Of a stretch of 64,000 nt of DNA, positions 1 to 32,722 are shown piece by piece. The position numbers and the translations under genes were made by a program. The stretch's first letter is position 1. Every line of letters starts with the position of its first letter. The notes below the pieces were generated by a model. That model worked only from the letters and a program-made list of their open reading frames with translations, did not search any database and was not told the DNA's origin. Where the stretch lies: positions 2,046,001 to 2,110,000 of the forward strand of contig NZ_CP074372.1 of NCBI RefSeq assembly GCF_018362995.1, in the 5' to 3' direction. Origin of the DNA: Chryseobacterium indologenes. GTDB taxonomy: Bacteria; Bacteroidota; Bacteroidia; Flavobacteriales; Weeksellaceae.

Positions 1-793
1 CGGCACACATGGCAGTAGGTTTTACTTCTTCCAGTGCTTTGGCTACATTTTTAGGATCTTCCAGGAAATAAACACGGGCACCGCCATACAGACAAAGTAA
101 GCTCCAGCTTCTTTCAAAGACGTGGCTCAATGGTAAGAATGCCAGTGAAAGTTCTTCTTCAAAGTTTTTAAACTTAAAAAATTCAAAATGAGAATCAAAT
201 GCTTTGATGAAATTTCCATGGGTAAGCATTACTCCTTTTGGAATTCCCGTAGTTCCTGAAGTATAGATCAATGTGGCTGTATCATCATTTTCCTTCTTAA
301 AAATCTCCAGTTCCGGTGAAGCTTTAGCAATAAAATCTTCAAGATAAAAATTGTTGAATTCTTTCTTGATCCACACTGCTTTTTTAGAAACAATAATGGT
401 TTCAAGATTGTTTTCTTCTTTATGTAAAAACTCAAGACAGGCATCATACTGCATCTGATTTCCCACTAAAACAGCTTTAGCTCCGGAATCGTTGATGATA
501 TGTTCTGCCTGCTCAGCATTATTAGTTGAATAAATAGGCACCGTAACAGCACCGATGGCCATTGAAGCCAGGTCAACGATCATCCATTCGGACGAGTTAT
601 CTGAATAAATAGCGACTCTGTCATTCTCCTGAATTCCAGCTTCCTTTAGGGCATTGGCTGTTTTAAAAATAACCTCACTGAATTTTTTCCAGCTCAACTC
701 TTTCCAGGCTCCCTCTTTCTTTTTAAATCCGATGGCCGCTTTTATAGGATGTTTTTCTACATTTTTAAGGATAATTGCCTCTGCAAGATTCAT
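1..793 (-). CDS. Long-chain acyl-CoA synthetase (AMP-binding), 3' part cut by window edge
   Basis: Partial gene: the N-terminal about 264 residues are visible and the reading frame runs off the left edge. It should activate fatty acids to acyl-CoA with ATP through an acyl-adenylate. The AMP-binding signature YTSGTTGIPKGVM lies near residue 177, followed by LPLSHVFER, both typical of FadD15-like long-chain synthetases of about 590 residues. The ATG at 793 overlaps the TGA of the upstream SDR gene by four bases (ATGA), so the two are translationally coupled. The C-terminal lid domain is not visible. The family is confident, the acyl chain preference unknown. Confidence 0.9.
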   Translation of the reverse strand, partial: MNLAEAIILKNVEKHPIKAAIGFKKKEGAWKELSWKKFSEVIFKTANALKEAGIQENDRVAIYSDNSSEWMIVDLASMAIGAVTVPIYSTNNAEQAEHIINDSGAKAVLVGNQMQYDACLEFLHKEENNLETIIVSKKAVWIKKEFNNFYLEDFIAKASPELEIFKKENDDTATLIYTSGTTGIPKGVMLTHGNFIKAFDSHFEFFKFKNFEEELSLAFLPLSHVFERSWSLLCLYGGARVYFLEDPKNVAKALEEVKPTAMCA

Positions 794-1803
794 TTCTTCA
801 GCTTTTTGTCGTTAATATAATTATTCAGGTGAAAGTCGATACTTTCTTTTACGGGAATAAACTGATAATTCAGTTTTTCTTTGACTTTGTGATTGGAAAT
901 GGTGTTGAAGGAAGAAATGGCTTCAATATTTGATTTGGTAACCATTTTCAATTTAGGAATCAGCCATCCGAAAAGGATGTTGGCTATTCTTCCGATATTT
1001 AATACAGATTGTGAAAGAATTCTGGCATCTTTAAGGCCGAGACGGGTTCTTACCTGTTTTGCAAGGTCTGCATATCTGTTATTTTCAGCAACAATGATAA
1101 AACGTTCTCCGAAAAGATTATTTTCCATCAGTTCAATTGCTGTATTGGCCACATCTCTTACATCAACGTAAGCAGAACCGCCGGAAAAGGTAAAACTATT
1201 GTCTTCAAAAGTAGAGAAAAGCTCACCGCTGCTTTGATTCCAGTTTCCGCTTCCTACAATCATTCCCGGATTGATAATGACTACATTCAGGCCTTCTGCT
1301 GAAGCTCTCCATGCTTCCATTTCAGATAAATGTTTTGAAATGGCATATGCAGAGTGTTCCAGTTTGGGATTAAAGTCAGAATCTTCGTCCAGTTCTCCTT
1401 TTTCATTGTAGCTATCGAGCACAGCAACAGAACTTACATGAAGAAATTTTTTAACGTCTGATCCTTCGCAGGCAAACAGGAGGTTTTCTGTACCCTTGAT
1501 GTTTGTACGGTACATTTCTTTTTCATCTTTGGGATGAAAGCTCACTTTTGCAGCACAGTGATAGACCTCATCCACACCTTGCAGTGCAGTTTTCAAAGAA
1601 TCTAGGTCATCAAAATCTACGTTTACCCATTCAATCTTGTTGAAAAAATCGTCTGGATTCTCCGTATAAAAGCTGTATGAATGCTTTACTTCGTTTAAAT
1701 TGCTGCCCGGTCTTTTGGAAGCACGTACATTTTTACCTCTTTTAAGAAGTTCCAGTACAATTATTCTTCCCAGAATTCCGGTAGCACCCGTTACAAAAAT
1801 CAT
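790..1803 (-). CDS. NAD(P)-dependent epimerase/dehydratase, extended SDR family
   Basis: A 337-residue Rossmann-fold enzyme. The N-terminal nucleotide-binding motif TGATGILG is at residues 5-12, and the SDR catalytic pair appears as YAISK near residues 151-155, with a serine in VSSVAVL upstream of it. This pattern fits the extended SDR group (NAD-dependent epimerase, dihydroflavonol reductase or 3-beta-HSD-like). It has no cleavable signal and should be cytoplasmic. Its stop overlaps the start of the acyl-CoA synthetase, which suggests a joint role in lipid or acyl-CoA metabolism, but the substrate cannot be read from the sequence. Confidence 0.85.
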   Translation of the reverse strand: MIFVTGATGILGRIIVLELLKRGKNVRASKRPGSNLNEVKHSYSFYTENPDDFFNKIEWVNVDFDDLDSLKTALQGVDEVYHCAAKVSFHPKDEKEMYRTNIKGTENLLFACEGSDVKKFLHVSSVAVLDSYNEKGELDEDSDFNPKLEHSAYAISKHLSEMEAWRASAEGLNVVIINPGMIVGSGNWNQSSGELFSTFEDNSFTFSGGSAYVDVRDVANTAIELMENNLFGERFIIVAENNRYADLAKQVRTRLGLKDARILSQSVLNIGRIANILFGWLIPKLKMVTKSNIEAISSFNTISNHKVKEKLNYQFIPVKESIDFHLNNYINDKKLKK

Positions 1804-2004
1804 TAATTATTTTACTTGATTGCTGACTAAAATATAACAATATTTTCTATCCGGCAATTCTTCCGGATCCGGCAAAAATTCCTTAGAAAAACTGCTTCTG
1901 CAAATTTGCGATTTTTAAAGCATAATTCCACTTTATTTAACCAATATTATCACTCAGAAATCAACAAACCAGAAAAATTTTAATCACAGTAGGTTATTAC
2001 ATTT

Positions 2005-2041
2005 AAAAGTCCTGAAAGAATGTACAACTTTCAGGACTTTT
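2005..2041. terminator. Bidirectional intrinsic terminator
   Basis: A perfect 14-bp inverted repeat (AAAAGTCCTGAAAG and its complement) encloses a 9-nt loop. The A-rich and T-rich ends make it work in either direction. It lies just beyond the 3' end of the graspetide operon (stop at 2062) and separates it from the SDR operon. Confidence 0.85.
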
Positions 2042-2061
2042 ATGATTAAAATGCTTTGTTT

Positions 2062-3066
2062 TTAAGCCATTACCTCATTATTTCTTCTTGGAGCTTTGTC
2101 GCAAAGAACGTCTGCAATGCTCCTGGAAATAAGGTTTCCTTCTGTAAGATTATCCAGCCAGAAGAATTCTCCTGCGGCATTGATCTCGATGAAGTAGTAT
2201 TCATCTTCAGGAGAAACAATCATGTCTATTGCTCCGTAATCTACATTGTAAATATCCAGGAGTTCAAGCAGTTTTGCTTCTACATCTGCCGGAAGTTCTG
2301 TTCTGCTCCATTTATCAATCAGATTGATTCCGTCTTTTCTCCAGTCTACTTTGGCATCTTCGGATTGCTGGGAATCTATTTCAAATGCATAAACATCTCT
2401 TCCCACAATGGTAATACGAAGTTCTTTTTTCTTTTGAATCATCTGCTGAAACTGCATTGGGCAATACAGCAAGGAATCCAACTCTTCCAGCTTATTTTCA
2501 CTGACAACATTGGTAAAGACTACACTTTCAACACCGTCTTCATAGATGGCAAAACCGGTCTGCATTTTTGCCACTACATTTTGATGTTTCAGAATAAATT
2601 TTCTAGCTTCATCAGGATTATTGGTAAGGCAGGTTGCCGGAATGGTCAGTCCTAATTTATCTGCAATTTTCAATTGTTCTTCTTTGCTGTCCAACCTTCT
2701 GTAAATACTTGGTTTTCCCAAAGAATAAGCATCTACAGACTCAAAGAAACCGAAAAGTGTATTTCTGATTTCGCCCATGGCCGCACCGTAAAACTTAGAG
2801 TCCATTTCTTCTTTTAAGCCTTTTCCGATATTGTAAGCTCTTCTGTACCAAATGGCTGAAATATCATCTAGACGGTGCTTTGCATCCGGAGTTTCAAGAA
2901 AACTTACCCATTCCCCATCCTGAAAAATGGTGGAAAGCTTGTTTTGTAAAGGATAAACGTCAACATCAAAGCGAATAACTTCACAGTTATTTTTCTCGAT
3001 GTATTCTGTTACTTTTTCAATAGAAAAGTTATCTGCGGTATGGGTTATAATTAAAATTTTATTCAT
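2062..3066 (-). CDS. MdnC/MvdD-like ATP-grasp graspetide ligase (ester-forming)
   Basis: A 334-residue ATP-grasp enzyme expected to form omega-ester (lactone) bonds between Thr/Ser and Asp/Glu side chains of the precursor peptides. Hallmarks of the MdnC/MvdD branch are WYRRAY near residue 90, LRITIVG, VDWRKDG and the C-terminal metal/ATP-binding run IEINAAGEFFWL. The start ATG at 3066 was preferred to an upstream in-frame codon at 3111 because family members begin with M-(K/T)-(I/V)-L-I-(I/V)-T-H. It overlaps the preceding ligase gene by eight bases, so the ligases are coupled. In microviridin pathways this enzyme acts first. Neighbours on the 5' side are the second ligase and two precursors. 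Confidence 0.9.
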   Translation of the reverse strand: MNKILIITHTADNFSIEKVTEYIEKNNCEVIRFDVDVYPLQNKLSTIFQDGEWVSFLETPDAKHRLDDISAIWYRRAYNIGKGLKEEMDSKFYGAAMGEIRNTLFGFFESVDAYSLGKPSIYRRLDSKEEQLKIADKLGLTIPATCLTNNPDEARKFILKHQNVVAKMQTGFAIYEDGVESVVFTNVVSENKLEELDSLLYCPMQFQQMIQKKKELRITIVGRDVYAFEIDSQQSEDAKVDWRKDGINLIDKWSRTELPADVEAKLLELLDIYNVDYGAIDMIVSPEDEYYFIEINAAGEFFWLDNLTEGNLISRSIADVLCDKAPRRNNEVMA

Positions 3067-4015
3067 GGAAATTAATTCTGTTGATAAGATTATCGGCAAT
3101 TCTTTCTGCAATGGGAAATCCCAGCTCTTTTTGCAGCATTCCCCACTCTCCCTGCGGATTCACTTCAAGGAAATAATATTCCCCGTCTCTTCCTTTGATC
3201 ATATCAATGGCTCCTATGTAAAGTCCCATTTCATGCATCATGGAAGTGAGATTGGCTTTTACAGGCTCCGGAAGTTCGTACGCTGACCAGAAATAGCCTT
3301 CGTGAGCTACTCTCCAGTCTGCATTTTCACTGTTATTGATCTTTCCTGTAAAGAAATCACCGTCTACATAAACGATTCTCAATTCGTATTCTTTTTCAAT
3401 ATAAGGCTGAAAAATCATCGGGCAGTATGCAATGTCTGAAAGGTTTTCAAGTGATTCCTCTTCAATTATTGTAGTGGAAATCATGTTTTCACCTGACATT
3501 GTTTTCGCCGTTACTCCGTGAAGCTTAGCAATTGCTTTTCCCTGACAGTATTGATGGAAAAAATTCGTTATTTTCTCTTCATCATTGGAAAAAATAGTTT
3601 TGGGGATCGTTAAGTTATTTCTTTCTGCAATTTTAAGCTGAAATATCTTATTGCCGTCAACTTTTTTTTCATTTTCATAGGGATTGATCCACGGAATATG
3701 CTCTAAGGCAGTTATCAGGTTGTAGCGCAGGCTTCCATATTCGTTCAGGAAGATTTTTTCATAATCCTGGTCCAATTCTTCAGGAGTACTTATTCTCCAC
3801 GCTTTTCTGTGCCACACTCCTTTGATTGCATCAGAATGAATGGTATTTCCGGATTCATCAGTCAGTTCAAATGAATTTTCATCAATGCTGATTTTCTGAA
3901 GATGATTCAGTCGGTCAGAATTCAGTCTGAAATAAGGAATACTTTTGGAAGCCAGGTATTCGAAAAAGAGATCAATATTATAAAAATCCTGTGAATGGGT
4001 GATGCAGAGAATCAT
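3059..4015 (-). CDS. MdnB/MvdC-like ATP-grasp graspetide ligase (amide-forming branch)
   Basis: A 318-residue ATP-grasp ligase. It begins MILCITHSQDF and ends with LEVNPQGEWGML, the GEWGML block that marks the MdnB/MvdC branch, which in microviridins closes the Lys-Glu lactam after the ester rings are made. Other shared blocks are WHRKAWR near residue 90, YCPMIFQPYIEKEYELR and GAIDMIKG. It is the first enzyme gene after the two precursors and overlaps the MdnC-like gene by eight bases. The split of ester versus amide activity between the two ligases is inferred from family membership. Because the cores here carry unusual acidic tails, its actual bond could differ. Confidence 0.88.
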   Translation of the reverse strand: MILCITHSQDFYNIDLFFEYLASKSIPYFRLNSDRLNHLQKISIDENSFELTDESGNTIHSDAIKGVWHRKAWRISTPEELDQDYEKIFLNEYGSLRYNLITALEHIPWINPYENEKKVDGNKIFQLKIAERNNLTIPKTIFSNDEEKITNFFHQYCQGKAIAKLHGVTAKTMSGENMISTTIIEEESLENLSDIAYCPMIFQPYIEKEYELRIVYVDGDFFTGKINNSENADWRVAHEGYFWSAYELPEPVKANLTSMMHEMGLYIGAIDMIKGRDGEYYFLEVNPQGEWGMLQKELGFPIAERIADNLINRINFHE

Positions 4016-4034
4016 TTGCCGGTTTTTATTAAAA

Positions 4035-4061
4035 AGGGAAACTTACTATTTAAGTTTCCCT
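4035..4061 (-). terminator. Terminator-like attenuator between precursor and ligase genes
   Basis: A perfect 10-bp stem (AGGGAAACTT / AAGTTTCCCT) with a 7-nt loop is followed on the minus strand by five T residues. It sits between the second precursor (stop at 4087) and the first ligase (start at 4015), where no operon end is expected. It probably ends part of the transcripts, giving more precursor than enzyme. Confidence 0.7.
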
Positions 4062-4086
4062 ACTATTTTTTATTATATTCTACTTA

Positions 4087-4311
4087 TTATAGCGGAATAA
4101 AGATTGTATCATCATCACCGTCAGATGGATATTTCAGCGTGTGCATCATATCGTCTTTTGGGGAAGTTACCGTGTCTACTGCCGGCTTTGTAATCAAATC
4201 TGTTTCAGCAAGTGTTATATCACCTCCTCCTTTTACGGTTTCAGGATCTTTAACCTGCTTTTCTAAGAATGATGCGAAAAAAGGCTTCTTCTTTGAGTTT
4301 TGGTTTTTCAT
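4087..4311 (-). CDS. Graspetide (microviridin-type) precursor peptide 2
   Basis: A 74-residue precursor. The leader holds SKKKPFFASFLEKQ (residues 6-19), matching the PFFxxFL helix that ATP-grasp ligases recognise, and a KGGG run at 27-30. The C-terminal core is TLKYPSDGDDD (58-68) followed by TIFIPL. It keeps the microviridin TxKYPSD signature, but the acidic pair that is normally Glu-Glu is replaced by Asp-Asp-Asp. The spacer has an 8-residue rhythm (D38, D46, D54). It sits 52 bp after its paralogue and 71 bp before the first ligase gene. A protease-inhibitor role is typical of the family but not shown here. Confidence 0.9.
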   Translation of the reverse strand: MKNQNSKKKPFFASFLEKQVKDPETVKGGGDITLAETDLITKPAVDTVTSPKDDMMHTLKYPSDGDDDTIFIPL

Positions 4312-4363
4312 AATGTTTAGTTTTGGTTTGATATATAATTAAGCTTAAGCTGTATGTATATTC

Positions 4364-4600
4364 TTATACATCTAAAACATCCTCATCTCCGTCAGAAGGA
4401 TATTTCATTGTTACATTATCATTATCAGGCTTGGTAACATTATCCTTAAGAGGAGTAGTGATCTGATCCTGGAGAGATGTAGTAATCTGATCTGCCAATA
4501 CAGAAGTAATACCTCCACCTTTTACTGTTTCAGGGTCTTTAACCTGTTTTTCTAAGAATGTTGCGAAAAATGGCTTCTTTTTTGAATTTTTGTTTTCCAT
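4364..4600 (-). CDS. Graspetide (microviridin-type) precursor peptide 1
   Basis: A 78-residue precursor, first gene of the locus. The leader is nearly identical to that of the neighbouring paralogue: KKKPFFATFLEKQVKDPETV then KGGG at residues 27-30. The core is TMKYPSDGDED (64-74) with tail VLDV. Residues 37-64 form four octads starting D37, D45, D53 and D61, each with Thr at the fourth position (T40, T48, T56, T64); the last one runs into the core. Canonical microviridin rings use Thr-Asp, Ser-Glu and Lys-Glu; here Asp-Glu-Asp follow Gly71. No exporter or N-acetyltransferase of the mdnE/mdnD type lies beside it. Confidence 0.92.
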   Translation of the reverse strand: MENKNSKKKPFFATFLEKQVKDPETVKGGGITSVLADQITTSLQDQITTPLKDNVTKPDNDNVTMKYPSDGDEDVLDV

Positions 4601-4714
4601 AAGTTAATATTTTTATCGTTTTGGAAATCCAAAGTACAAAAAATTCAAATCATGGAGAAATAATATTACATTTTAATAAAATTTTAACATAATATTGAAA
4701 ATCAAAGTATAATA

Positions 4715-5494
4715 TTAATTTAATCCAAGAAACTCCTTCACAACATTTGCGAAATCAACCGGATTTTCTGCCTGAACCCAATGTCCTGCATTTTTTACCG
4801 TAACGACTTTAGCTTTAGGAAACTGCTGTCTGATCCCAAATTCATCCTGCGGCAGAATATAATTGGATTTTGCTCCTGCTATAAACAGTGTCTCACCTTC
4901 AAAAACTCCAAACTTAATGGCATTGGATACAAATTCCGTATATTTCTCAGACAGGGTTTTAAGGTTAAATCTCCAGCCCAGTTTTTTATTGTCATCCCAA
5001 TACAGGTTTTTCGTTAAAAACTGTACGGTAGATCTTTCCGGAATATATTGGTTCAGGACTGCTTCCACCTCATTTCTTGAAGTTACCGTATTAAAATCAA
5101 CAGTTTCCAGTGCTTTGATAATTCCCTGGTGATGTGGCGGATATGCTTTAGGTGAAATATCCACAACAATCAGTTTTTCAACGTGTTCAGGATATTTTAT
5201 AGCAAACTGCATCACTGCTTTACCTCCTAAAGAATGTCCTAAAACATTAGCTTTCTGAATTCCATAATGATCCATATAACGGGCAATATCATCTGCCAGA
5301 TCATCATGAGACATACTTTCGGAATGAAAGCTTCTGCCGTGGTTTCTAAGGTCGATCAGATGTACAGTAAGGTATTCTCCCAGGTCTTTTCCGAAGCTTC
5401 CCCAGTTGTCAAGCATTCCAAATAATCCGTGAAATACAAGAAGCGGCGTATGAGTTGAATTTTCGCCGAATATTTTTGAGTTTAAAATTTCCAT
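4715..5494 (-). CDS. Alpha/beta hydrolase, YbfF-like esterase
   Basis: A 259-residue alpha/beta-hydrolase-fold enzyme of normal length for YbfF-type esterases. The nucleophile elbow is GHSLGG (Ser near residue 107), the oxyanion motif is HGLFG near residue 22, and the catalytic His is probably that of NAGHW near residue 239. There is no signal peptide. It is transcribed alone or with the upstream pdxJ, 142 bp away. The substrate is unknown; short-chain acyl esters are usual for the family. Confidence 0.85.
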   Translation of the reverse strand: MEILNSKIFGENSTHTPLLVFHGLFGMLDNWGSFGKDLGEYLTVHLIDLRNHGRSFHSESMSHDDLADDIARYMDHYGIQKANVLGHSLGGKAVMQFAIKYPEHVEKLIVVDISPKAYPPHHQGIIKALETVDFNTVTSRNEVEAVLNQYIPERSTVQFLTKNLYWDDNKKLGWRFNLKTLSEKYTEFVSNAIKFGVFEGETLFIAGAKSNYILPQDEFGIRQQFPKAKVVTVKNAGHWVQAENPVDFANVVKEFLGLN

Positions 5495-5636
5495 ATTTTA
5501 GAAGTTAAATGTGAGAAATCAGAAGTCAGATTAAAAGTTCTCATCATTTTATTTACATTATCAGTGTGTAAACTATATGAAAGATCAGAAACGAAGTTTA
5601 CTAGCTTCTAATCTCTAAATTCTGATTTCTTATTAA

Positions 5637-6356
5637 TTACCATTTTGCCAGTCTCTTCAGATAAGCCTGAACCGTATTTTCCAATCCCATATAAAGTGCT
5701 TCGGAAATCAAAGCATGCCCTATAGATACTTCCAACAGGTTGGGAATGGTGTCTGCAAAATATTTAAGGTTTTCTAAGCTTAGATCATGACCCGCATTGA
5801 TTCCCAATCCGAAATTGGTAGCCTCAACTGCAGTGTCGTAATAAGGTTTTATAGCTTGTTCTTTATTGATCAGATAATTTTTTGCGTAAGCTTCAGTATA
5901 CAGTTCTATTCTGTCTGCGCCCGTTTTAGCAGCATATTCTACCAATTCCGGCAAAGGATCAAGAAAAACAGAAGTACGGATTCCCGCCTTTTTGAATTCT
6001 GCGATAATGTCTGTAAGGAAACCGAGATGCTTTTTGGTATCCCAGCCTGCATTGGATGTAATTGCATCATCAGCATCCGGCACTAAAGTTACCTGCTCCG
6101 GCTTCACCTCCAATACCATATCGATAAAACTCTGATGTGGATTTCCTTCAATATTAAACTCAGTCGTAACCAACGGCTTCAGATCATAGACATCTTTTCT
6201 TGTGATATGCCTTTCATCAGGTCTTGGGTGGATGGTAATTCCTTGTCCTCCGAATTCCTGAATTTTTACAGCAGCTTCTGTAACACTTGGGGTTTCTCCT
6301 CCTCTTGCATTTCTTATCGTCGCAATTTTATTAATGTTTACGCTTAGTTTTGTCAT
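5637..6356 (-). CDS. pdxJ: Pyridoxine 5'-phosphate synthase
   Basis: A 239-residue TIM-barrel enzyme that condenses 1-deoxy-D-xylulose 5-phosphate with 3-amino-2-oxopropyl phosphate to pyridoxine 5'-phosphate in the DXP-dependent vitamin B6 route. It begins MTKLSVNINKIATIRNARGG, with the N-terminal substrate-binding region typical of PdxJ, then ITIHPRPDERHI and a C-terminal VSIGHALISEAL phosphate-binding segment. The length matches the family. Cytoplasmic. No other pdx gene is in the window. Confidence 0.97.
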   Translation of the reverse strand: MTKLSVNINKIATIRNARGGETPSVTEAAVKIQEFGGQGITIHPRPDERHITRKDVYDLKPLVTTEFNIEGNPHQSFIDMVLEVKPEQVTLVPDADDAITSNAGWDTKKHLGFLTDIIAEFKKAGIRTSVFLDPLPELVEYAAKTGADRIELYTEAYAKNYLINKEQAIKPYYDTAVEATNFGLGINAGHDLSLENLKYFADTIPNLLEVSIGHALISEALYMGLENTVQAYLKRLAKW

Positions 6357-6532
6357 TTTTTATTTTAGATGTTAGATATAAAATGTTAGAAGCTGAAAGC
6401 ACGGGCTGGAAATAAATCCAGACTTTGTACTTCTATTGGTCTTCCACATTTATGATCATTTAAAAGTTTAATTTAAAATTTGTTTAAAAAGTGCTGAAAC
6501 TTCCAGCTTCCCTCTTCTGCCTTCCAGCTTTT

Positions 6533-7801
6533 CTATACTTTCACACTTACCTGCATCACCTGAAGTTCAAATTCTTTGGATGCCACCAATAAATGGTCAA
6601 AAATATCGGCCTGAATCTGCTCAAAACGTTCCCATTTGGAATCATTCGCAAAACAATATACTTCAAGAGGCAGTCCTTGTGGGGTAATGTCCAGCTGACG
6701 TACCATGCGGGTTCCGTTTTTATCTATGTCCGGATCATTTTCAATATATTTCTGGGCATAATATCTGAAAACCCCGATATTGGTAAGCTGCCTTCCATTC
6801 ACAATTTTATCCTTATGCTCAAGACTTTCTTTCTCTTTTTTGATCTCTGATGTTCTTTCCTCCAGATAATCTGAGATCAGGTTAATCTCCTTTAAACGCT
6901 CAACATCTTCATCCGTCAAAAATTTAAAAGAATTGATATTAAAGTAAATTGATTTTTTTATTCTCCTTGTATTGGATTCAGACATCACCTGCATATTCTT
7001 GATTTCAGTGGTCATCAGGTCATAGGTAGGAATGGTGGAAACGGTCTTATCAAAATTGGTAATTTTGGTAGTCAAAAGATTGATTTCTGTAATATTTCCT
7101 TCAATACTGTATTTGGGAATGCTTACCCAATCTCCTACTTTTAAATTTTTAGAAGTGGCAACATGAAGCCCTGTTACAAACCCTAAGATCGTATCTCTGA
7201 AAACCAATACCAGCACCGCTGTAATCGCCCCAAGACTTCCTACGATAGTGGTTCCTTTGATCCCAAAAATGACACAAAGTCCTACTACAGTAAATATAAA
7301 AAGTCCTAAAATCTTTACGGTTTCTGAAATGGCATTAAGTGCCATAATCTTGTAGAAATCCTGTTTGATGCTGAAATAATTTCTAAAAGCAGTCAATGAT
7401 CTGTATAGCATTCCTGCTAACATCAGTACCAATCCCAGATTAATACATCGTATTATAAAAATGGTTGTTTTGGGCAATGCATTTTCCGGAAATATAGATC
7501 CCTGAATGCCGGCAACAGCAATCAAAGCTGCAAAATGGGCTACAGAATTGGTGATTTTGGCCTGATAAATAGATTTTAAGATGGGAAATTTCTGTTCATT
7601 ATGAAATAACCTGAAGACAGAATTAATGATGAATTTAAAAACAAAATCAGTGATAAAAAACAGAACGAGAAGTAAACTCAACTTTACAATGATATGGAAA
7701 ACCCAGTCCAGCCCGGAAGGTGATATCTGGGTAATATAAATGTAAAGCTGTTCACTCAGCTCCTGTATAAAGTTTTTAGTTTCTTGTAACTGGTCATTCA
7801 T
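6533..7801 (-). CDS. Mechanosensitive channel, MscS family
   Basis: A 422-residue inner-membrane protein with four or five hydrophobic segments before residue 180 and a cytoplasmic C-terminal half. The pore-lining TM3/beta-domain region is recognisable as GSLGAITAVLVLVFRDTILG followed by KNLKVGDWVSIP, typical of YbdG-type MscS proteins. It should release osmolytes on hypo-osmotic shock or tune cell volume. The C-terminal domain has a charged stretch near residues 310-330. It is separated from pdxJ by 176 bp and is divergent from the next lipoprotein gene. Confidence 0.9.
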   Translation of the reverse strand: MNDQLQETKNFIQELSEQLYIYITQISPSGLDWVFHIIVKLSLLLVLFFITDFVFKFIINSVFRLFHNEQKFPILKSIYQAKITNSVAHFAALIAVAGIQGSIFPENALPKTTIFIIRCINLGLVLMLAGMLYRSLTAFRNYFSIKQDFYKIMALNAISETVKILGLFIFTVVGLCVIFGIKGTTIVGSLGAITAVLVLVFRDTILGFVTGLHVATSKNLKVGDWVSIPKYSIEGNITEINLLTTKITNFDKTVSTIPTYDLMTTEIKNMQVMSESNTRRIKKSIYFNINSFKFLTDEDVERLKEINLISDYLEERTSEIKKEKESLEHKDKIVNGRQLTNIGVFRYYAQKYIENDPDIDKNGTRMVRQLDITPQGLPLEVYCFANDSKWERFEQIQADIFDHLLVASKEFELQVMQVSVKV

Positions 7802-8034
7802 TACAGCAAATTTATGAAATTAAGAATCATCATTTTACTATTCGCAATCAATTTTCATCCCAAAAAGCATTCATTGGGAAATATTTAATAAAATTTTTTA
7901 TTGAATAATAATTATAAAATATAGAATCTTCCACAACCCTTAATTATAAATGAAAAATTAACTACAAATAACAATTTTAAATAAAAAATATTAAAATAAA
8001 TTACACATTTAATGTTTAAATATTAAAAAATTAT

Positions 8035-8042
8035 TAAATTTG
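8035..8042 (+). promoter_or_regulatory. Promoter -7 element for lipoprotein gene
   Basis: TAAATTTG matches the Bacteroidota -7 consensus TAnnTTTG and lies 33 bp before the ATG at 8075. The upstream 230 bp are extremely AT-rich, and no clear -33 TTG was found. Confidence 0.5.
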
Positions 8043-8074
8043 ATTAAAACTAAACCAATCAAAATCAAATAAAT

Positions 8075-9262
8075 ATGAAACAAAATTACCTGTTGATTAT
8101 GCTATGCAGCCTTGTGCTTCTAGTTAATTGTAAAGGAGACGACTCTGTTACTCCTGAAGAAAATCCTACTAAAGTAGTTGCCACAGGAAAAGTGGAAGGT
8201 AAAGTATTCGCAAAAAACGGTACCAAACCAGTGGGAGGAGCTCTTGTATTCACTACCGACAGCCAGAGCAATATCTACCATACGTATTCCGGTGCTGATG
8301 GCAGCTTCAGTTTAACAGCACCTGAAGGCATTACAACGCTTCACATTCAGACCGGTGACGGTAAAAATTTCAGATCCGAAGTTCCGGTCACGATTAAAAA
8401 GAATGAAACGGTTACTGTAGCCGCAACGGACTCAAAGTTGGATCAAATCGCAAAAATGGCTTATATAAAAGGAAATTATGATGAAATTGAAGCGATCATA
8501 AGTTCTCTTGGATATACTGCTACTGAAATTACTTATCAGGACTTAAAAAACATCAATACCATTTCCCAGTATGATATTATCTTCCTGAACTGCGGATCCC
8601 GTACTTATGCACAAACCGGCACTTCATCGCCAAGCAATGACAATAATGTATATTCCAATCTTTCTACTTTTGTAAGCAATGGCGGAAGTCTTTACAGCTC
8701 AGACTGGGCATCGGCTTATCTGGTAGGTGGAAATACAAATACGGTAAGCTGTAATGCTCCTGGTGGTTTTATCAATGATAATCTTCTTTGCCTGAAAGAC
8801 ATTGGAGCTGCAGGCGCATATACTGGCTGTAGTGTTTCAAATCCTGCATTGGCAACCGCATTAGGGTTTAATACATTAGACATTGACTATGATATGGGTT
8901 CATGGGAGAAAATTCAGAACTATGATCCCGCATTCTGGGATGTTCTTGTACAGAAAGGCAACGAGCCACTGATGATAAGAACAAGACATTATACAAACCC
9001 TTCTGCTCCGCTAACTCCTGTAGGAACTTCTTTAAACAATAATCACATCACGATCTGCCATCATACAGCAAGCGGGAATAATATTACCATTACTATCAAT
9101 CAGAATGCATGGAATGCACATCAGGCACATGGAGATACCATGGGACCTTGCTCCGGAAATTCCAGCAGCGGAAATATCTACTATACCACATTCCATAACC
9201 ACGCCAGTGGAAATATCGGTAAAGCAGGACCGATTCTGGAATACGTAATCTTAAATTTGTAA
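8075..9262 (+). CDS. Lipoprotein with regulatory-like beta domain and ThuA-like domain
   Basis: A 395-residue SPII lipoprotein (lipobox LLVNC near residue 19). Residues about 35-110 resemble a carboxypeptidase regulatory-like beta-sandwich (GKVFAKNGTKPVGGALVFT). Residues about 130-230 look like a Rossmann or glutamine-amidotransferase-like fold (YDIIFLNCGSR, FVSNGGSLYSSDWAS). Near residues 324-359 is a module with Cys328-His329, His349, His352-Gly-Asp354 and Cys359, a CH...AHxxHGDxxGxC pattern that recurs in secreted Bacteroidota proteins. The function is unknown; an outer-membrane surface role is likely. It carries its own promoter and a downstream terminator. Confidence 0.8.
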   Translation: MKQNYLLIMLCSLVLLVNCKGDDSVTPEENPTKVVATGKVEGKVFAKNGTKPVGGALVFTTDSQSNIYHTYSGADGSFSLTAPEGITTLHIQTGDGKNFRSEVPVTIKKNETVTVAATDSKLDQIAKMAYIKGNYDEIEAIISSLGYTATEITYQDLKNINTISQYDIIFLNCGSRTYAQTGTSSPSNDNNVYSNLSTFVSNGGSLYSSDWASAYLVGGNTNTVSCNAPGGFINDNLLCLKDIGAAGAYTGCSVSNPALATALGFNTLDIDYDMGSWEKIQNYDPAFWDVLVQKGNEPLMIRTRHYTNPSAPLTPVGTSLNNNHITICHHTASGNNITITINQNAWNAHQAHGDTMGPCSGNSSSGNIYYTTFHNHASGNIGKAGPILEYVILNL

Positions 9263-9285
9263 TAAAATTTTATAACTCAGTTCTC

Positions 9286-9316
9286 AAGGTGGTCTTTTAT
9301 AAGGCCACTTTTTTTA
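9286..9316 (+). terminator. Intrinsic terminator
   Basis: AAGGTGGTC and GGCCACTT pair, with one G-T wobble, around a short AT-rich loop, followed by eight T residues. It ends the lipoprotein transcript 24 bp after its stop. Confidence 0.75.
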
Positions 9317-9338
9317 TATTGCATCTATATTTTAAAGA

Positions 9339-9830
9339 ATGGATACAACAATTATTAATATTTTCTGCCTTATTCTTCTGTTTATAGGAATATTGGGAAC
9401 TTTTCTTCCTGTTTTGCCGGGGCTTTTACTAAGCATCTGCGGGCTTCTGATCTATAAATTCGGGACGGATGCGGACCTTCCTATGATCTATATCTGGGCT
9501 TTCGGGATTCTTACCATAGCATCTGTGGTATTAAGTTATGTCATTCCTGCAAAAACCAACAGAAAATACGGAGGTACGCGTTGGGGAAGCATCGGGTCTG
9601 TGATAGGAACCATTGTTGGTATATTTATTCCGATTCCCTTAGGTTTTCTTATCGGAATGTTTGCGGGTGTATTTATTGGTGAATTACTTCATGACAGTAA
9701 GGATATGAATAAAGCCTTACAATCTACCAAAGGAGCACTGATTGGATTTATTTATGGAACTGGATTCAGTTTTGTGGTAGGAGTGGCAATGTTTTTGGTA
9801 GTACTTCTTAATATGTTTAACGTTATTTAA
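9339..9830 (+). CDS. DUF456 family membrane protein
   Basis: A 163-residue polytopic membrane protein of the DUF456 family. It opens with a hydrophobic helix containing GILGTFLPVLPG, the conserved Pro-rich motif, and later has two Gly-rich helices (GSVIGTIVGIFIPIPLGF and GALIGFIYG) separated by a GELLHDSKD loop. About four to five membrane segments. The function is unknown. It is followed after 17 bp by a lipoprotein gene, so the two probably form an operon. Confidence 0.85.
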   Translation: MDTTIINIFCLILLFIGILGTFLPVLPGLLLSICGLLIYKFGTDADLPMIYIWAFGILTIASVVLSYVIPAKTNRKYGGTRWGSIGSVIGTIVGIFIPIPLGFLIGMFAGVFIGELLHDSKDMNKALQSTKGALIGFIYGTGFSFVVGVAMFLVVLLNMFNVI

Positions 9831-9847
9831 TTAAAATATAAGAAACT

Positions 9848-10357
9848 ATGTTCCATAAAGTTATCATACTCAGTCTGGGAATATTTGCATTAACCGGATG
9901 CGATGCCCAAAAGAAATCTAAGATGAACACAAAAGCTACTGAAATGCCAGCAAGTACAAAAACTACAAACACAGGTAATCAACAGGATGGCATTCTATAC
10001 CTTAGTGAAGGAGAAAATAAGTTCTTAAGAGAATACCAGATGAATGTGACATTCAAAGGGGTTTCTGAAGACAGCCGCTGTCCTGAAGGAGCGAATTGTA
10101 TCTGGGCCGGTGTTGCTCTTGCTCAGGTGGAGGTAATGGGAACTTCTACACGACCAATGATTCTGAACCTGGCCAGCGCAGATTATCCCGGAAAAGATTA
10201 TCACCAGTCGGCGGAATTCAATGGATATATTCTTACACTACAAGATGTTGCCCCATCCCCAAAATCACAGGATGGCACAAAAGCACTGTCAGGAAATTAT
10301 AAAATCGGGATTACTATAAAAAAGGCAAATCCATCAACTGATTCTACCAGGAAATAG
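9848..10357 (+). CDS. Hypothetical lipoprotein
   Basis: A 169-residue SPII lipoprotein (lipobox LTGC near residue 18) with a low-complexity Thr/Lys linker and then a compact beta-rich domain. The block DSRCPEGANCIWAG, with two cysteines four residues apart, is a recurring motif of uncharacterised bacterial lipoproteins. No enzymatic motif is visible. Its 3' end overlaps the 3' end of convergent ung by 14 bp, and no terminator lies between them. Confidence 0.75.
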   Translation: MFHKVIILSLGIFALTGCDAQKKSKMNTKATEMPASTKTTNTGNQQDGILYLSEGENKFLREYQMNVTFKGVSEDSRCPEGANCIWAGVALAQVEVMGTSTRPMILNLASADYPGKDYHQSAEFNGYILTLQDVAPSPKSQDGTKALSGNYKIGITIKKANPSTDSTRK

Positions 10358-10985
10358 GCTTCTTCCCTTTGGAAACAAGATACTCATTAATTTTTGAGAA
10401 AGGCTTGCTTCCAAAAAAACCTCTGTACACAGAAAATGGTGAAGGGTGTGCCGATTTCAGAATAAAATGCTTAGCCGGATTTATGAGTTCGGCTTTTTTT
10501 TGTGCAAAAGCGCCCCACAAAACAAACACTACGTTCTCTTTTTTGTCTGAAATTTCTTTAATAATAAAATTTGTGAATTTTTCCCAACCCAGATCTTTAT
10601 GGGAATTGGGAGAATGAGCGCGAACCGTTAACGTTGCATTCAAAAGTAAAACTCCTTGTTTTCCCCAGTCATCCAGTTCTTTGGAAGTTCTTACTACTCC
10701 TAAATCATCTTTTAACTCAATAAAAATATTCTTAAGTGATGGCGGTGCTGCAACCTGTTCAGAAACAGAAAAACACAAACCATTTGCCTGAAAATCATTA
10801 TGGTAAGGATCCTGCCCGATAATAACCACCTCAATATCATCAAAAGGCGTCAGCTCCAGCGCTCTGAAAATCTGATTCTTCGGTGGAAAAACTTTAGTTG
10901 TTGCATATTCATTCTTTACTTTCTCCCAAAGGGTTGTAAAGTATTCTGTACTCTTTATAGGGGCTAAAATTTCTGTCCACGTCAT
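10344..10985 (-). CDS. ung: Uracil-DNA glycosylase, family 1
   Basis: A 213-residue base-excision repair enzyme that removes uracil from DNA. The water-activating motif GQDPYHN is near residues 57-63, the uracil-binding Asn lies in LLLNATLTVR, and the Leu-loop motif is AHPSPFSVYRGFFG near residue 180, with Phe in place of the common Leu in HPSPLS. Length is normal for family 1. The gene converges on the lipoprotein gene with a 14-bp coding overlap. Confidence 0.97.
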   Translation of the reverse strand: MTWTEILAPIKSTEYFTTLWEKVKNEYATTKVFPPKNQIFRALELTPFDDIEVVIIGQDPYHNDFQANGLCFSVSEQVAAPPSLKNIFIELKDDLGVVRTSKELDDWGKQGVLLLNATLTVRAHSPNSHKDLGWEKFTNFIIKEISDKKENVVFVLWGAFAQKKAELINPAKHFILKSAHPSPFSVYRGFFGSKPFSKINEYLVSKGKKPISW

Positions 10986-11021
10986 AATGCAAAAATAATA
11001 ATATTAAAATAAGAGCCTGCA

Positions 11022-12026
11022 TTATACTTTAAATATCTTCAGTTTTCTTTCGATCAGCATATAAGAAATATAAGACAGTAACAACGAAAAGGATATTAAT
11101 AAAAGATTATTAAAATGATAATTACTGACAACAGCGAAATCCTGCTTCTTTACAATATAATGGATAATATATAATGAATAAGAGATATTTCCCAGGAAAT
11201 AAATTGGTTTGGTTTCCAAAAATGTTTTTAAATAGTTTTGCTTTCCTTCATACAGATATTTTATCATAAATGCAGACAACAAAGGAATAAACAACAGTCC
11301 TTTTTCCACAAACAGCATAGAGAGAAACAATATAAGAATGATATAAATAATGAGATTTTCTTTTTTCATTTTAAATGGTGACAAAAGAGCTACTCCAATT
11401 CCAAGAAAATAAGAGGAAACTGTTCTTAATAAAGAAACAAGACCATAAGGAAGATCAAGATATCTTGGTGATTCTCCTACTTCCATGAGGTGTTCGGAAC
11501 CTATGTACAAGTGGCCGGGTAAATAAGGAAGTACAAATCTCAAAACCAAACTTGCAATAATTAAAACTTCGCTTCGTATTTTATAATGCAGGATAAGCCA
11601 CAGCATAAAAGGAAAAATCAGATAGCAAACCCACTCTGTACTGAGTGACCAGTAAACAACATTCAGCAGATAATCAGGATTAAAAAAACATTGTAATAAT
11701 GTAGCATTTATAAAGAATCCGCCGATATTACTTTTCTCTAAAAACAAAACAATAAAAATGACTGATATAATGTATACAGGATAAATTCTATTGATTCTTT
11801 TTTTATAAAAAACCTCTATTTCTTTATAATTCAGTTCTTTAAATTTTCCTGCATAAGAAACAGTTAATAAAAAAGCACTTAATACAAAAAAGATATCCAC
11901 CGCCACATATCCCTTCCCTACTATATCCTGAATGAATTCATTCCTAAAAAAACTAAAATGAAAAAAAGCTACCCATAATGCAACAACCCCTCTAAGCCCC
12001 GTTAAAGATTTTATTTCATTTTTCAT
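11022..12026 (-). CDS. Acyltransferase family 3 membrane protein
   Basis: A 334-residue integral membrane O-acyltransferase of the OafB/OatA type with about ten hydrophobic segments. The N-terminal signature [17 protein letters not shown] carries the conserved Arg and the catalytic-type His. It likely acetylates a surface polysaccharide or other glycan using acyl-CoA. The ATG at 12026 was chosen over an upstream TTG at 12038. The gene is more AT-rich than its neighbours, which hints at variable surface-glycan genes. It follows the GNAT gene by about 45 bp. Confidence 0.85.
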
Positions 12027-12071
12027 ATATAATTTCAATCGGTGATAAAGATAGAAAAAACCTGTTAGATT

Positions 12072-12596
12072 TTATATTCCCTCATTACCGGACAGTCTTT
12101 TTAAACTAAAAATAATGTTATCCGGAAAACCTTCATCTTTCTTTCCCTCCAGCAAAATAAAATCATGCTTTACAAGAAGTCCTTTTGAGTTTTCATTGAA
12201 TCTATTTGTGATTGCTACAATTTCCTGTAAATGCAGTTCGTCAACTCCAAAATTTAAAACTGCTTTCAATGCTTCAGATATGATCCCCTGTCTGTGGTAT
12301 TGCGGCAGCAATTCATACCCGACTTCTGCTGTTTTCCGGTCTTCAGAAAAATTCCACAGACAGATTGTACCGATAAGATTCGGCTGGTCTTTTAGAGAAA
12401 TTCCCCAATATACAGTTTGATTATTTTGAACTTTTTCCTTAATCGTTAAAATAAACTGAAGCGCATCATAGTTTGTCTTGGGTGATACCCTTTTCACAAA
12501 CTTATTGACCTCCGGATTGCTTCGGATTTTTAAAATATCTTCTGTATGGCTTTCATTGATTCCTTTTAAAATCAACCTTTCAGTTTCCAGTTTCAT
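12072..12596 (-). CDS. GNAT N-acetyltransferase, RimJ/RimL-like
   Basis: A 174-residue GNAT enzyme. It begins with the RimJ/RimL style LETERLILKGI and has acetyl-CoA binding region VGYELLPQYHRQGIISEAL near residues 91-110 (the Q/R-x-x-G-x-G/A loop), followed by a NENSKGLLVKHDF segment. The substrate is unknown; ribosomal protein N-termini or small amines are family options. It lies upstream of the membrane acyltransferase gene on the same strand. Confidence 0.85.
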   Translation of the reverse strand: MKLETERLILKGINESHTEDILKIRSNPEVNKFVKRVSPKTNYDALQFILTIKEKVQNNQTVYWGISLKDQPNLIGTICLWNFSEDRKTAEVGYELLPQYHRQGIISEALKAVLNFGVDELHLQEIVAITNRFNENSKGLLVKHDFILLEGKKDEGFPDNIIFSLKRLSGNEGI

Positions 12597-26270: not shown

Positions 26271-28010
26271 CTATTTGCTAATTTGTGAATACAAATTAAC
26301 AATTGTTTTCAAAAGTTCTTCAAGTGCATCAGCAGATTTCACAGGATTATATTTTTCCATCTGAACTCTCTGCTGCAATTTGTTGTAATCTTCTGCAACT
26401 GAAGCGCCTTTGTGTTTTTCAAGAAAAGTCTTAAACTCTGCTGTAGAGCTTTGGAAATACTGACTTCTCACTTCCTGATCCAATTCCTCCAGTGTCGTAA
26501 AGAACTTTTCGTACTCACTGTTATCCTTAAGATTTTCCAGGTACCCGAAATAATCATTGATATCTGTTTTCAGCAATTCTCTGATCTCTTTTTCTGTTTC
26601 AGCCACTGAACCTAAAGGTTTTGACGGTACACTTTCCCTAACTAATGTACGTTTTTTTTGCCAATTTTTAAATAACAGATAAGCAACAAATAAGCTTATT
26701 AAAATGGCAATATTTGTTAAAAGGATATTCCAGTGGAATTTACTTTTTTCTTTTACTTTAAATGAAGTTGTTTTTAAAACCGGAGTATTCACCGTCTCCA
26801 GAAGGTTATTGGTATACTCGTTTACCTTTTCTACCGTAGAGCGGGCCTCCAGGATCTGATCATGAGAAAAGGCATTCAGATCCAGTGTTTTTTGTCCCAG
26901 ATCTACATATTCTTTGTTTTCAGGATCAAAGAAAGCAAATTGCTCAGTTTTAATAGAAATTGCCCCTGATTTTTTTGGAATAATGACATAATTCGCCAGA
27001 ATCTCACCTTTCATTCCAGTAGTTCCCGGAGAAACTTTGGAGGTGATTTTCGGAGGAAAGATTTCATAATCCGGCGATGCTGCAATTTTAGGAAGTTGCA
27101 TGTCCGGTAAATTTCCTTCTCCTGAAACCTTCACAACAACATTCAGTGGTTTCTTAGCTTCCGGTTTTTCTTTGGAAGCATTATATACGTTGACATTAAA
27201 GTTTCCGACAGCATTTTTAAAACACTCAGGTGCTCCTTCAGGAAGCTTCCTTACATTAATTTTTACTTTATTGGAAACAATCTTGGTTTTATTGGAATAA
27301 GTACTTACAGAAGCTGACACTCCTGGAACCTCCACATACCCGGCTTCATTAGGAAATACCATAAACATGGCCAGCACCTGTGAAGGCATATTTCCATATC
27401 CGGACGGATCTATCTCAGATTTATCAAAATTGATAGGATGTACGTTGATATTATCCTGCTGCGGAAGATGGATATTCTTCACCTTTCTGAGGTTATCCAT
27501 GTTTCTTGAGTATACCCTAAGAACAGCTACTGTAGGCTGATCCTGATAGACTTCCCGGTCATCAATTTCCATATTCAGATAGACATCATTGGAGGTATTG
27601 GCAGCTAATGATCTTCTGTCAACAATATCCCGGATATTAACGTCGAAAGGTTCTGTTTTATAGATTCTGTTGTTTACCGTAACCAGAACTGAGCCTATTT
27701 TTATTTTTCCTTTTTTCTTAGGTTCAAGGGCAATTCTGGATACTTTTTGGGTAATTAAAGTATTGGTCGCTGGATCAATCACGGTATTGGTAACAGATCC
27801 GCTTCCTATGATATTAAATTTTGAAAGATCCGGAAGCTGAAAACCTGTCTGCTGTACAAGGTCACTTCCGTTAAGTTCAAGAACAATGGTAAGGTTTACA
27901 ATATCTTTCCCTCCATACTCGGATTTATCAGCATCCAGAGTAAGATTTACCTGTCCGTAAGTAATTACGGATGCGAGGGTAAGTAATATGTAAATCAATT
28001 TGTGCTGCAT
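26271..28010 (-). CDS. batD: BatD, aerotolerance-type membrane protein
   Basis: A 579-residue protein with a signal peptide (ending ITYGQ), a long periplasmic beta-rich part, one membrane helix (ILLTNIAILISLFVAYLLF near residue 430) and a cytoplasmic helical tail. Blocks NLTLDADKSEYGGKDIVNLT and PAEPGxxxVPGVS-like segments fit BatD (oxygen tolerance) proteins. The start ATG at 28010 overlaps the batC stop (TGATG); upstream TTG/GTG codons were not preferred. It works with the BatA/B von Willebrand proteins, role unsettled. Confidence 0.92.
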   Translation of the reverse strand: MQHKLIYILLTLASVITYGQVNLTLDADKSEYGGKDIVNLTIVLELNGSDLVQQTGFQLPDLSKFNIIGSGSVTNTVIDPATNTLITQKVSRIALEPKKKGKIKIGSVLVTVNNRIYKTEPFDVNIRDIVDRRSLAANTSNDVYLNMEIDDREVYQDQPTVAVLRVYSRNMDNLRKVKNIHLPQQDNINVHPINFDKSEIDPSGYGNMPSQVLAMFMVFPNEAGYVEVPGVSASVSTYSNKTKIVSNKVKINVRKLPEGAPECFKNAVGNFNVNVYNASKEKPEAKKPLNVVVKVSGEGNLPDMQLPKIAASPDYEIFPPKITSKVSPGTTGMKGEILANYVIIPKKSGAISIKTEQFAFFDPENKEYVDLGQKTLDLNAFSHDQILEARSTVEKVNEYTNNLLETVNTPVLKTTSFKVKEKSKFHWNILLTNIAILISLFVAYLLFKNWQKKRTLVRESVPSKPLGSVAETEKEIRELLKTDINDYFGYLENLKDNSEYEKFFTTLEELDQEVRSQYFQSSTAEFKTFLEKHKGASVAEDYNKLQQRVQMEKYNPVKSADALEELLKTIVNLYSQISK

Positions 28011-28753
28011 CACCAATCTTTCTCGTTGCTTTCAGGCATCGAATAAGAATTTTTGTTTAAAATTCTTCTGGCGGTTTCTTTTTCTTTTTCGTTTATTTTA
28101 TCTAAGATCGCATTTTCAAGATTTTTAGGCATTCTACCTTCATTATTCTGATTCTGCTTAGGATTATCACCTTGGTCGCTTTTACCTTCGTTTTGCGGGC
28201 CATTTCCCTGATCCTGTTTTTTGTCTTTGTCGCCTTTCTGATCGTCACCTTTGTTCTGATCATTTCCGCCGCCGCCTTTTCCTGAGTTGTTCTCCTGGTT
28301 CTTTTGTTGTTCTTTTTCTTTCTCTTTCAGCTTGGCAATCTCATAATTTTTTCTGGTTACCTCACTGTAGGGATCCTGCTTTAAAGCTTTCTTATAAAAA
28401 TCAGCAGCTTTTTCCGGCTGGTTCATCTGCATATAAGCATTCCCTAAATTATGAAGAGCGGCAGTTTTATCAGGAAGTGTTTGTGAAAGTTTTTCTGCTT
28501 TTTCAAACTCCGTTTTTGCCTCTTCGTATTTTTTACTTTTATAGAGTGCATTCCCCATATTATAATGAGCAGTAAAATCTTTATCATTGGATTTTATTGC
28601 TTCCATATATTTTGAAGAGGCTCCGTCATAATCTTTACCGTCAAATTTCTGATTACCTTCATGAACCAAATTTCTGTAGCTTTCCTGCCCAAACAACAAG
28701 CCTGAGAATGAGATGACAACAATAAACGATAAAAATATGATTTTAGTATTCAT
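28010..28753 (-). CDS. batC: BatC-like TPR protein
   Basis: A 247-residue exported TPR protein. After a signal peptide (ending LLFGQ), about three TPRs occupy residues 25-130 (AHYNMGNALYKSKKYEEAK, ALHNLGNAYMQMNQPEKAAD). The second half is low complexity, rich in Lys, Gln, Asn, Gly and Asp, which is typical for BatC. The chosen ATG is 28753; an upstream TTG at 28762 lies inside a promoter-like box. It links BatB and BatD in the operon. Confidence 0.9.
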   Translation of the reverse strand: MNTKIIFLSFIVVISFSGLLFGQESYRNLVHEGNQKFDGKDYDGASSKYMEAIKSNDKDFTAHYNMGNALYKSKKYEEAKTEFEKAEKLSQTLPDKTAALHNLGNAYMQMNQPEKAADFYKKALKQDPYSEVTRKNYEIAKLKEKEKEQQKNQENNSGKGGGGNDQNKGDDQKGDKDKKQDQGNGPQNEGKSDQGDNPKQNQNNEGRMPKNLENAILDKINEKEKETARRILNKNSYSMPESNEKDW

Positions 28754-28759
28754 CACTTG

Positions 28760-28767
28760 CAAAATTA
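28760..28767 (-). promoter_or_regulatory. Internal promoter -7 element before batC
   Basis: On the minus strand TAATTTTG fits TAnnTTTG and ends six bases before the batC ATG. The 99-bp gap between batC and batB is the widest inside the bat part of the operon. Confidence 0.45.
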
Positions 28768-28852
28768 TTCCTTTATATGTTAAGAAACAGAGTTTTATTT
28801 GTTAAAATTCGGTTAAAGTACTTGTAGAATTTCTTCTATATAAAGAGGAAAT

Positions 28853-31741: not shown

Positions 31742-31797
31742 TGTTAAAATAATAAAGGCAAGTGCCTCATGTTTTTAGTTACGGGCTGAACCCGGTG

Positions 31798-32661: not shown

Positions 32662-32722
32662 AGACGAATTCAAGGTTTAAAATTCAAAGTTTACTGTTGA
32701 GTTGCGAGATCCGGGTTTCTGC

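What the first reader, a model, noticed from the sequence alone, without database searches (positions are those of the whole stretch)
2062..4600. Compact graspetide locus with microviridin-like cores ending in unusual acidic triplets
Two precursors keep the leader motif PFFAxFL and the core TxKYPSD, beside both MdnB- and MdnC-like ATP-grasp ligases. The acidic residues that follow differ from canonical Glu-Glu: Gly-Asp-Asp-Asp in one and Gly-Asp-Glu-Asp in the other, then a hydrophobic tail (TIFIPL, VLDV). Three candidate acids compete for the Ser ester and Lys amide, and an Asp-based lactam would be unusual. Transporter and acetyltransferase genes common in cyanobacterial loci are absent. Microviridin-type chemistry is known; this variant and its ring topology are not evident from the sequence.
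Basis: partly seen in the sequence, partly recalled or inferred. Interest (0 to 1): 0.78.

Follow-up and report, generated by a model that had tools for sequence, protein, structure and literature searches.

The report
Ordinary chryseoviridin locus of Chryseobacterium
This stretch encodes a known type of ring-tied bacterial peptide, probably a blocker of protein-cutting enzymes; its supposedly unusual ending is the commonest one among close relatives, so the locus itself is ordinary.

Summary
It is a chryseoviridin (cdn) locus on a Chryseobacterium chromosome: CdnC matches solved C. gregarium CdnC (7mgv, E 7e-190), and the flanking epimerase and alpha/beta hydrolase are those published for cdn loci.

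The endings are not unusual: of 188 cores from 79 loci, GDDD (75) and GDED (29) are the two commonest tails, and a Lys-Asp13 lactam is stated for microviridins in PMC9826346.

I predict seven and six water losses, not three.

Conservation suggests the bonding: residue 12 is Asp in 188 of 188; residue 13 is acidic in all 185 Lys cores and non-acidic in the three Arg cores, which belong to one clade. Hence Ser-Asp12 and Lys-residue 13 are likely; Asp14 stays possible for the GDDD precursor. No bond was tested.

New member of a known kind; low interest.

The parts
4364..4600 (-). precursor A (CdnA-type), 78 aa, tail GDED
   Evidence: NF033738 70.8 bits
4553..4573 (-). leader motif PFFATFL of A
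4511..4519 (-). GGG of A, probable leader cleavage region
   Evidence: position; cleavage inferred
4418..4507 (-). four TxxxxD units of A: TSVLAD, TTSLQD, TTPLKD, TKPDND, predicted single ester rings
   Evidence: rings inferred
4379..4411 (-). microviridin-like core of A, TMKYPSDGDED (residues 64-74); predicted T64-D70, S69-D72, K66-E73
   Evidence: bonds inferred
4087..4311 (-). precursor B (CdnA-type, next to cdnB), 74 aa, tail GDDD
   Evidence: NF033738 71.3 bits
4264..4284 (-). leader motif PFFASFL of B
4222..4230 (-). GGG of B, probable leader cleavage region
   Evidence: position; cleavage inferred
4150..4215 (-). three TxxxxD units of B: TLAETD, TKPAVD, TSPKDD, predicted single ester rings
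   Evidence: rings inferred
4108..4140 (-). microviridin-like core of B, TLKYPSDGDDD (residues 58-68); predicted T58-D64, S63-D66, K60-D67 (or D68)
   Evidence: bonds inferred
4035..4061 (-). hairpin with T-rich tail between precursors and cdnB, probable partial terminator
   Evidence: perfect stem of 8 or more pairs at this place in 73 of 79 loci against 3 of 78 shuffled
3059..4015 (-). cdnB, MvdC/MdnB-type ATP-grasp ligase, probable lactam former
   Evidence: TIGR04185; 7m4s, 5ig8
2062..3066 (-). cdnC, MvdD/MdnC-type ATP-grasp ligase, probable ester former
   Evidence: TIGR04184; 7mgv CdnC E 7e-190
2005..2041 (-). inverted repeat after cdnC, probable end of the operon
   Evidence: seen by eye in the sequence; not scored by a tool
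790..1803 (-). flanking NAD-dependent epimerase-family gene
   Evidence: present in 74 of 78 related loci; flank named in PMC8939145
4715..5494 (-). flanking alpha/beta hydrolase gene
   Evidence: present in 78 of 78 related loci; flank named in PMC8939145

Best explanation
A chryseoviridin biosynthetic locus. The leader (PFFAxFL) recruits CdnC, which uses ATP to activate Asp side chains and closes a row of six-residue Thr-to-Asp ester rings (four in A, three in B), then the two esters of the C-terminal core (Thr4-Asp10, Ser9-Asp12). CdnB then closes one lactam from Lys6 to residue 13 (Glu in A, Asp in B). Expected losses are seven waters for A and six for B. The leader is probably cut at the GGG by a C39-type peptidase-transporter encoded elsewhere. 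The product is probably a serine protease inhibitor; Met or Leu at core position 5 suggests elastase- or chymotrypsin-like targets. Shown: genes, homology, gene order, repeat spacing, conservation. Inferred: every bond, cleavage, export and target.
For: CdnC is a close relative of solved CdnC and CdnB of solved MdnB-type ligases. Gene order matches 78 of 78 related loci for CdnB-CdnC and the hydrolase, 74 of 78 for the epimerase, and the published cdn locus. T-x4-D is found 556 times in 174 distinct precursors against 107.3 +- 8.4 shuffled, while the other nine gap lengths tried (0-3, 5-9) show no excess. Residue 12 is Asp in 188 of 188; residue 13 acidic in 185 of 185 Lys cores and 0 of 3 Arg cores. 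Over 173 genus genomes, Thr-x-Lys/AGR-Tyr-Pro-Ser-Asp-x-Asp followed by a non-acid was found 7 times, all with Arg. Passages of PMC9826346 give Thr4-Asp10, Ser9-Glu12, Lys6-Glu/Asp13 for microviridins. PMC5934393 passages report a short single-lactone quasi-core in AMdnA.
Against: No peptide or bond was tested. The Arg co-loss is one clade, so one event. Asp13 goes with an acid at 14 in 76 of 89 cores, Glu13 in 38 of 96, and cdnB-proximal precursors have an acid at 14 in 73 of 79, so Asp14 could be the lactam acid of the GDDD type. Precursor A has two, not three, residues between the last ring Asp and the core Thr, so it does not match the published motif strictly, as is so for 57 of 174 distinct precursors. 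PMC8939145 and others are computational; the experimental chryseoviridin paper was not held. A proteome study did not detect microviridin in C. herbae (PMC10459008), which has such a locus (L043).
Confidence: 0.85

Rival explanations
1. Same locus, but in the GDDD precursor (B) CdnB joins Lys6 to Asp14, one residue further, because Asp13 is one carbon shorter than Glu13.
For: An acid at 14 accompanies Asp13 in 76 of 89 cores but Glu13 in only 38 of 96; cdnB-proximal precursors keep an acid at 14 in 73 of 79.
Against: 13 of 89 Asp13 cores have no acid at 14; microviridins with Asp13 followed by Tyr or Phe are listed in PMC8310014 and PMC9826346 states the Asp13 lactam. The association may only reflect one orthologous group.
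Confidence: 0.12
2. Only the C-terminal core is cyclised (three waters); the TxxxxD units are a spacer.
For: Only the C-terminal core resembles canonical microviridin cores (model match).
Against: T-x4-D is five times over the shuffled count at that one spacing; PMC8939145 counts extra linkages in the variable part; chryseoviridin itself is described as multicore in the title of the JACS 2021 paper (reference list), and recalled as having four consecutive small rings.
Confidence: 0.05
3. A silent or decayed locus whose peptides are not made.
For: Microviridin was not detected in C. herbae cells or culture by proteomics (PMC10459008).
Against: All four genes are open and the order is kept in related loci; family precursors are in 144 of 173 genus genomes. 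Unmodified-peptide searches would miss a multiply dehydrated peptide.
Confidence: 0.03

Closest known systems
Chryseoviridin (cdn) loci, Chryseobacterium gregarium and relatives
   Same: Two ATP-grasp ligases CdnB-CdnC, tandem precursors, PFFAxFL leader, GG motif, TxxxxD units before a TxKYPSD core, epimerase and hydrolase flanks
   Different: Two precursors here against four in C. gregarium (L064); C. gregarium's longest core ends SDEGG with a long Pro/Gly tail, these end GDED-VLDV and GDDD-TIFIPL
Microviridins of cyanobacteria (mdn/mvd)
   Same: Two-ligase scheme, core TxKYPSD with two acids, leader PFFAxFL
   Different: Asp instead of Glu at residue 12, leader Ser/Thr in place of Arg in PFFARFL, extra single-ring units, no N-acetyltransferase in the locus
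AMdnA of Anabaena PCC 7120 (multicore microviridin)
   Same: One leader for several cyclised segments, including a single-lactone quasi-core (PMC5934393 passages)
   Different: Repeats there are mostly full cores; here only the last unit is a full core

Membership tests
Chryseoviridin loci | CdnC-type ligase closely related to C. gregarium CdnC | tested here: met
   7mgv, E 7e-190 over the whole length; L064 C. gregarium at 81% identity
Chryseoviridin loci | Flanking epimerase and alpha/beta hydrolase | tested here: met
Chryseoviridin loci | Consensus TxxxxDxxxTxKxPSDxD[DE] | tested here: met
   B strictly; A with two instead of three residues before the core Thr. Strict in 117 of 174 distinct precursors
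Chryseoviridin loci | Several single Thr-Asp macrocycles plus a microviridin-like core in the product | not testable with these tools
   residues are present; bonds need mass spectrometry
Microviridin precursor family (NF033738, PF12559) | Score over the curated cut-off | tested here: met
Microviridin-type ligase pair | One MvdC/MdnB-type and one MvdD/MdnC-type ligase | tested here: met
   TIGR04185 431.5 bits (cut-off 425), TIGR04184 498.1 bits (cut-off 475)
Microviridin biosynthesis (cyanobacterial class I) | N-acetyltransferase in the locus | tested here: not met
   no such gene among the neighbours at 2-9830; nearest GNAT gene at 12072-12596, unlinked as far as seen
Serine protease inhibitor | Inhibition of a serine protease | not testable with these tools
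   inferred from the family only

The most novel reading that the evidence does not exclude
One CdnB serves two sibling substrates whose lactam acid differs (Glu13 in A, Asp13 in B). Both kinds are present in 60 of 79 loci (57 with only these two, 3 with an Arg-type core as well), so single loci would make two lactam ring sizes as a matter of course. A side clade with Arg6 and Ala/Ser13 would have given up the lactam and make ester-only products.
Probability: 0.55. Interest if true: 0.35.

Novelty: new member of a known kind. Interest (0 to 1): 0.2.

Why it matters
The locus is a routine member of a published family, so little follows from its existence.

Tried and rejected
Arg variants by DNA pattern over 320 family genomes: matches in 118 genomes, most of them chance. 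I picked 14 places from it by eye and fetched them. Seven (L122, L124-L129) hold an Arg precursor, all with Ala at residue 13; L123 and L130-L134 show only leaderless frames and L135 showed none.

Export partner: the genome has two C39 peptidase matches. C39 is found in 169 of 173 genus genomes. The four without it (G078, G082, G089, G121) are all among the 29 without a precursor match, so 144 of 144 against 25 of 29; the chance is 6.6e-4 without correction for relatedness. C39 is a general family (8 of 14 control genomes), so this is a hint only.

Promoters: sigma-70-type matches did not exceed shuffles (16 found, 12.5 +- 4.0); a loose flavobacterial-type motif was upstream of the first precursor in 49 of 79 loci, with no control: inconclusive.

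Structure prediction was not run: both ligases have solved relatives and a single-chain model would not place the lactam.

Limits of the precursor set: frames of 40-160 aa bearing a PFFAxFL-like motif, so precursors with other leaders would be missed; two frames without a core (L063, L069) were dropped before the counts. The 173 genus genomes and the 78 loci overlap and are not independent.

Full report
Setting. The window lies on a single-contig genome of 5,008,467 bases. Its CdnC is 99% identical to that of Chryseobacterium rhizoplanae (L003). In this genome the MvdD-type pre-ATP-grasp domain has two matches and the microviridin precursor family two, all of them in this locus.

Check of the observation. 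Both precursors, leader motifs, cores and tails read as reported and pass the NCBIfam and Pfam cut-offs. 3059-4015 is the MvdC/MdnB-type ligase and 2062-3066 the MvdD/MdnC-type ligase. The second is a near relative of CdnC (7mgv, E 7e-190); the first matches 7m4s and 5ig8 of the MdnB type.

What it is. PMC8939145 (outline, sections 5 and 8, and passages seen) examined 47 species close to C. gregarium for chryseoviridin loci, with CdnB, CdnC and two flanking genes, an alpha/beta hydrolase and an epimerase. It gives the motif TxxxxDxxxTxKxPSDxD[DE] and says that the variable part of the core could form one to three more linkages. The window has these flanks: epimerase-family gene 790-1803, hydrolase 4715-5494. 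In the collection scan, 83 stretches encoded a relative of CdnC, 80 were kept, 78 distinct loci resulted. CdnB directly precedes CdnC in 78 of 78, the hydrolase is in 78 of 78 and the epimerase in 74 of 78. Family precursors are in 144 of 173 genus genomes.

Neighbours. Examined by Pfam in the window: 2-793 AMP-binding, 790-1803, 4715-5494, PdxJ 5637-6356, a mechanosensitive channel 6533-7801, and the genes from 8075 to 12596. No peptide exporter or acetyltransferase is in the locus. An acyltransferase (11022-12038) and a GNAT acetyltransferase (12072-12596) lie 6.4 to 7.5 kb beyond the first precursor; nothing seen links them to it. DNA to the left of window base 1 was not examined.

The acidic tails. 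From the 78 loci and the window I read 190 small frames with the leader motif; two without a core were dropped, leaving 188, of which 174 distinct. Of 25 different tails, GDDD (75) and GDED (29) are the commonest. In microviridin numbering, residue 12 is Asp in 188 of 188; residue 13 is Glu in 96, Asp in 89, Ala in 2, Ser in 1. Exactly the core TMKYPSDGDED occurs in 25 and TLKYPSDGDDD in 28 of 79 loci, the window included. PMC5934393 (passages) writes the microviridin core as TX1KYPSDX2 D/E E/D; PMC9826346 (passages) states the lactam as Glu/Asp13 to Lys6; a table in PMC8310014 (passages) lists many microviridins with Asp at 13. In that table residue 12 is Glu except one Gly, so Asp12 does set the Chryseobacterium cores apart from those cyanobacterial ones, but as a trait of all 188.

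Which acid pairs with which donor. All 185 cores with Lys6 have an acid at 13; the three with Arg6 (L057, L059, L061) have Ala, Ala and Ser. Over 173 genus genomes, a pattern for Thr-x-(Lys or AGR-coded Arg)-Tyr-Pro-Ser-Asp-x-Asp followed by a codon beginning with A, C or T gave 0 hits, and followed by Ala, Gly or Val codons gave 7, all Arg. Three plus seven fetched Arg sequences form one clade of 10 (support 0.978), so this is one event; L122 and L124 lie on contigs of the same length as L057 and L059, so eight loci are distinct. Residue 14 is acidic in 114 of 188. This supports Ser9-Asp12 and Lys6-residue 13. Against a clean assignment for B: Asp13 goes with an acid at 14 in 76 of 89, Glu13 in 38 of 96, and precursors next to cdnB have an acid at 14 in 73 of 79. 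Thirteen Asp13 cores without an acid at 14 show that it is not always needed.

The missed rings. Between the GG and the core, T-x4-D occurs 556 times over the 174 distinct precursors against 107.3 +- 8.4 in shuffles; the other gap lengths from 0 to 9 show no excess. Three precursors have no such unit, 25 have two, 78 three and 68 four. A has four, B three. Between the last ring Asp and the core Thr lie three residues in 117, two in 52 of 174 distinct precursors, and 5 fit neither; B has three, A two. Recalled, not read: the JACS 2021 chryseoviridin paper (10.1021/jacs.1c02316; not held) reports four consecutive five- or six-residue macrocycles before a microviridin-like core. So seven and six water losses are predicted.

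Sibling pairing. The precursor next to cdnB has Asp13 in 71 and Glu13 in 8 of 79 loci; the other precursors have Glu13 in 88 and Asp13 in 18 of 109. Both acids occur in 60 of 79 loci. One CdnB thus faces both.

Expression. A hairpin with a T-rich tail lies between B and cdnB (4035-4061). A perfect stem of at least eight pairs is found in the 110 bases after the last precursor in 73 of 79 loci, against 3 of 78 shuffled stretches. Inference: partial termination keeps precursor transcripts in excess over ligase transcripts.

Function. Inference from the family: serine protease inhibition. Core position 5 is Met in 115 and Leu in 49 of 174 distinct precursors; that this residue enters the S1 pocket is recalled. 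[quoted passage not shown] PMC10459008 (passages) did not detect microviridin in C. herbae.

Literature limits. Searches: chryseoviridin; microviridin and KYPSD; graspetide and Chryseobacterium; microviridin, Bacteroidetes, ATP-grasp, core peptide; microviridin and Chryseobacterium; graspetide, lactam, MdnB. In the papers I opened I saw no solved topology for a GDDD or GDED chryseoviridin; most subscription papers are not held. Passages only of PMC7823629, PMC8386392, PMC13003496, PMC12291112 and PMC9576775.

Verdict. A sound observation of an ordinary member of a published family; the claimed oddity is the norm of the genus.

Noticed in passing
L057, L059, L061, L122, L124-L129: A clade of cdn precursors has Arg in place of the core Lys and Ala or Ser in place of the lactam acid, so these products probably lack the lactam.
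   Followed up: partly
window 4035-4061 and the same place in related loci: A hairpin GGAAACTTA...TAAGTTTCC sits between precursors and ligases in 73 of 79 loci.
   Followed up: partly
L063 4380, L069 4401: Short leader-only frames with PLFA in place of PFFA and no core, perhaps decayed precursors.
   Followed up: no
genus genomes: The four genus genomes without a C39 peptidase match are all without a precursor match; a hint that C39 exports these peptides, uncorrected for relatedness.
   Followed up: partly
window 26271-34230 (-): MoxR ATPase, VWA and two BatD-like genes in one stretch, an ordinary Bat-type operon by the four genes scanned.
   Followed up: no
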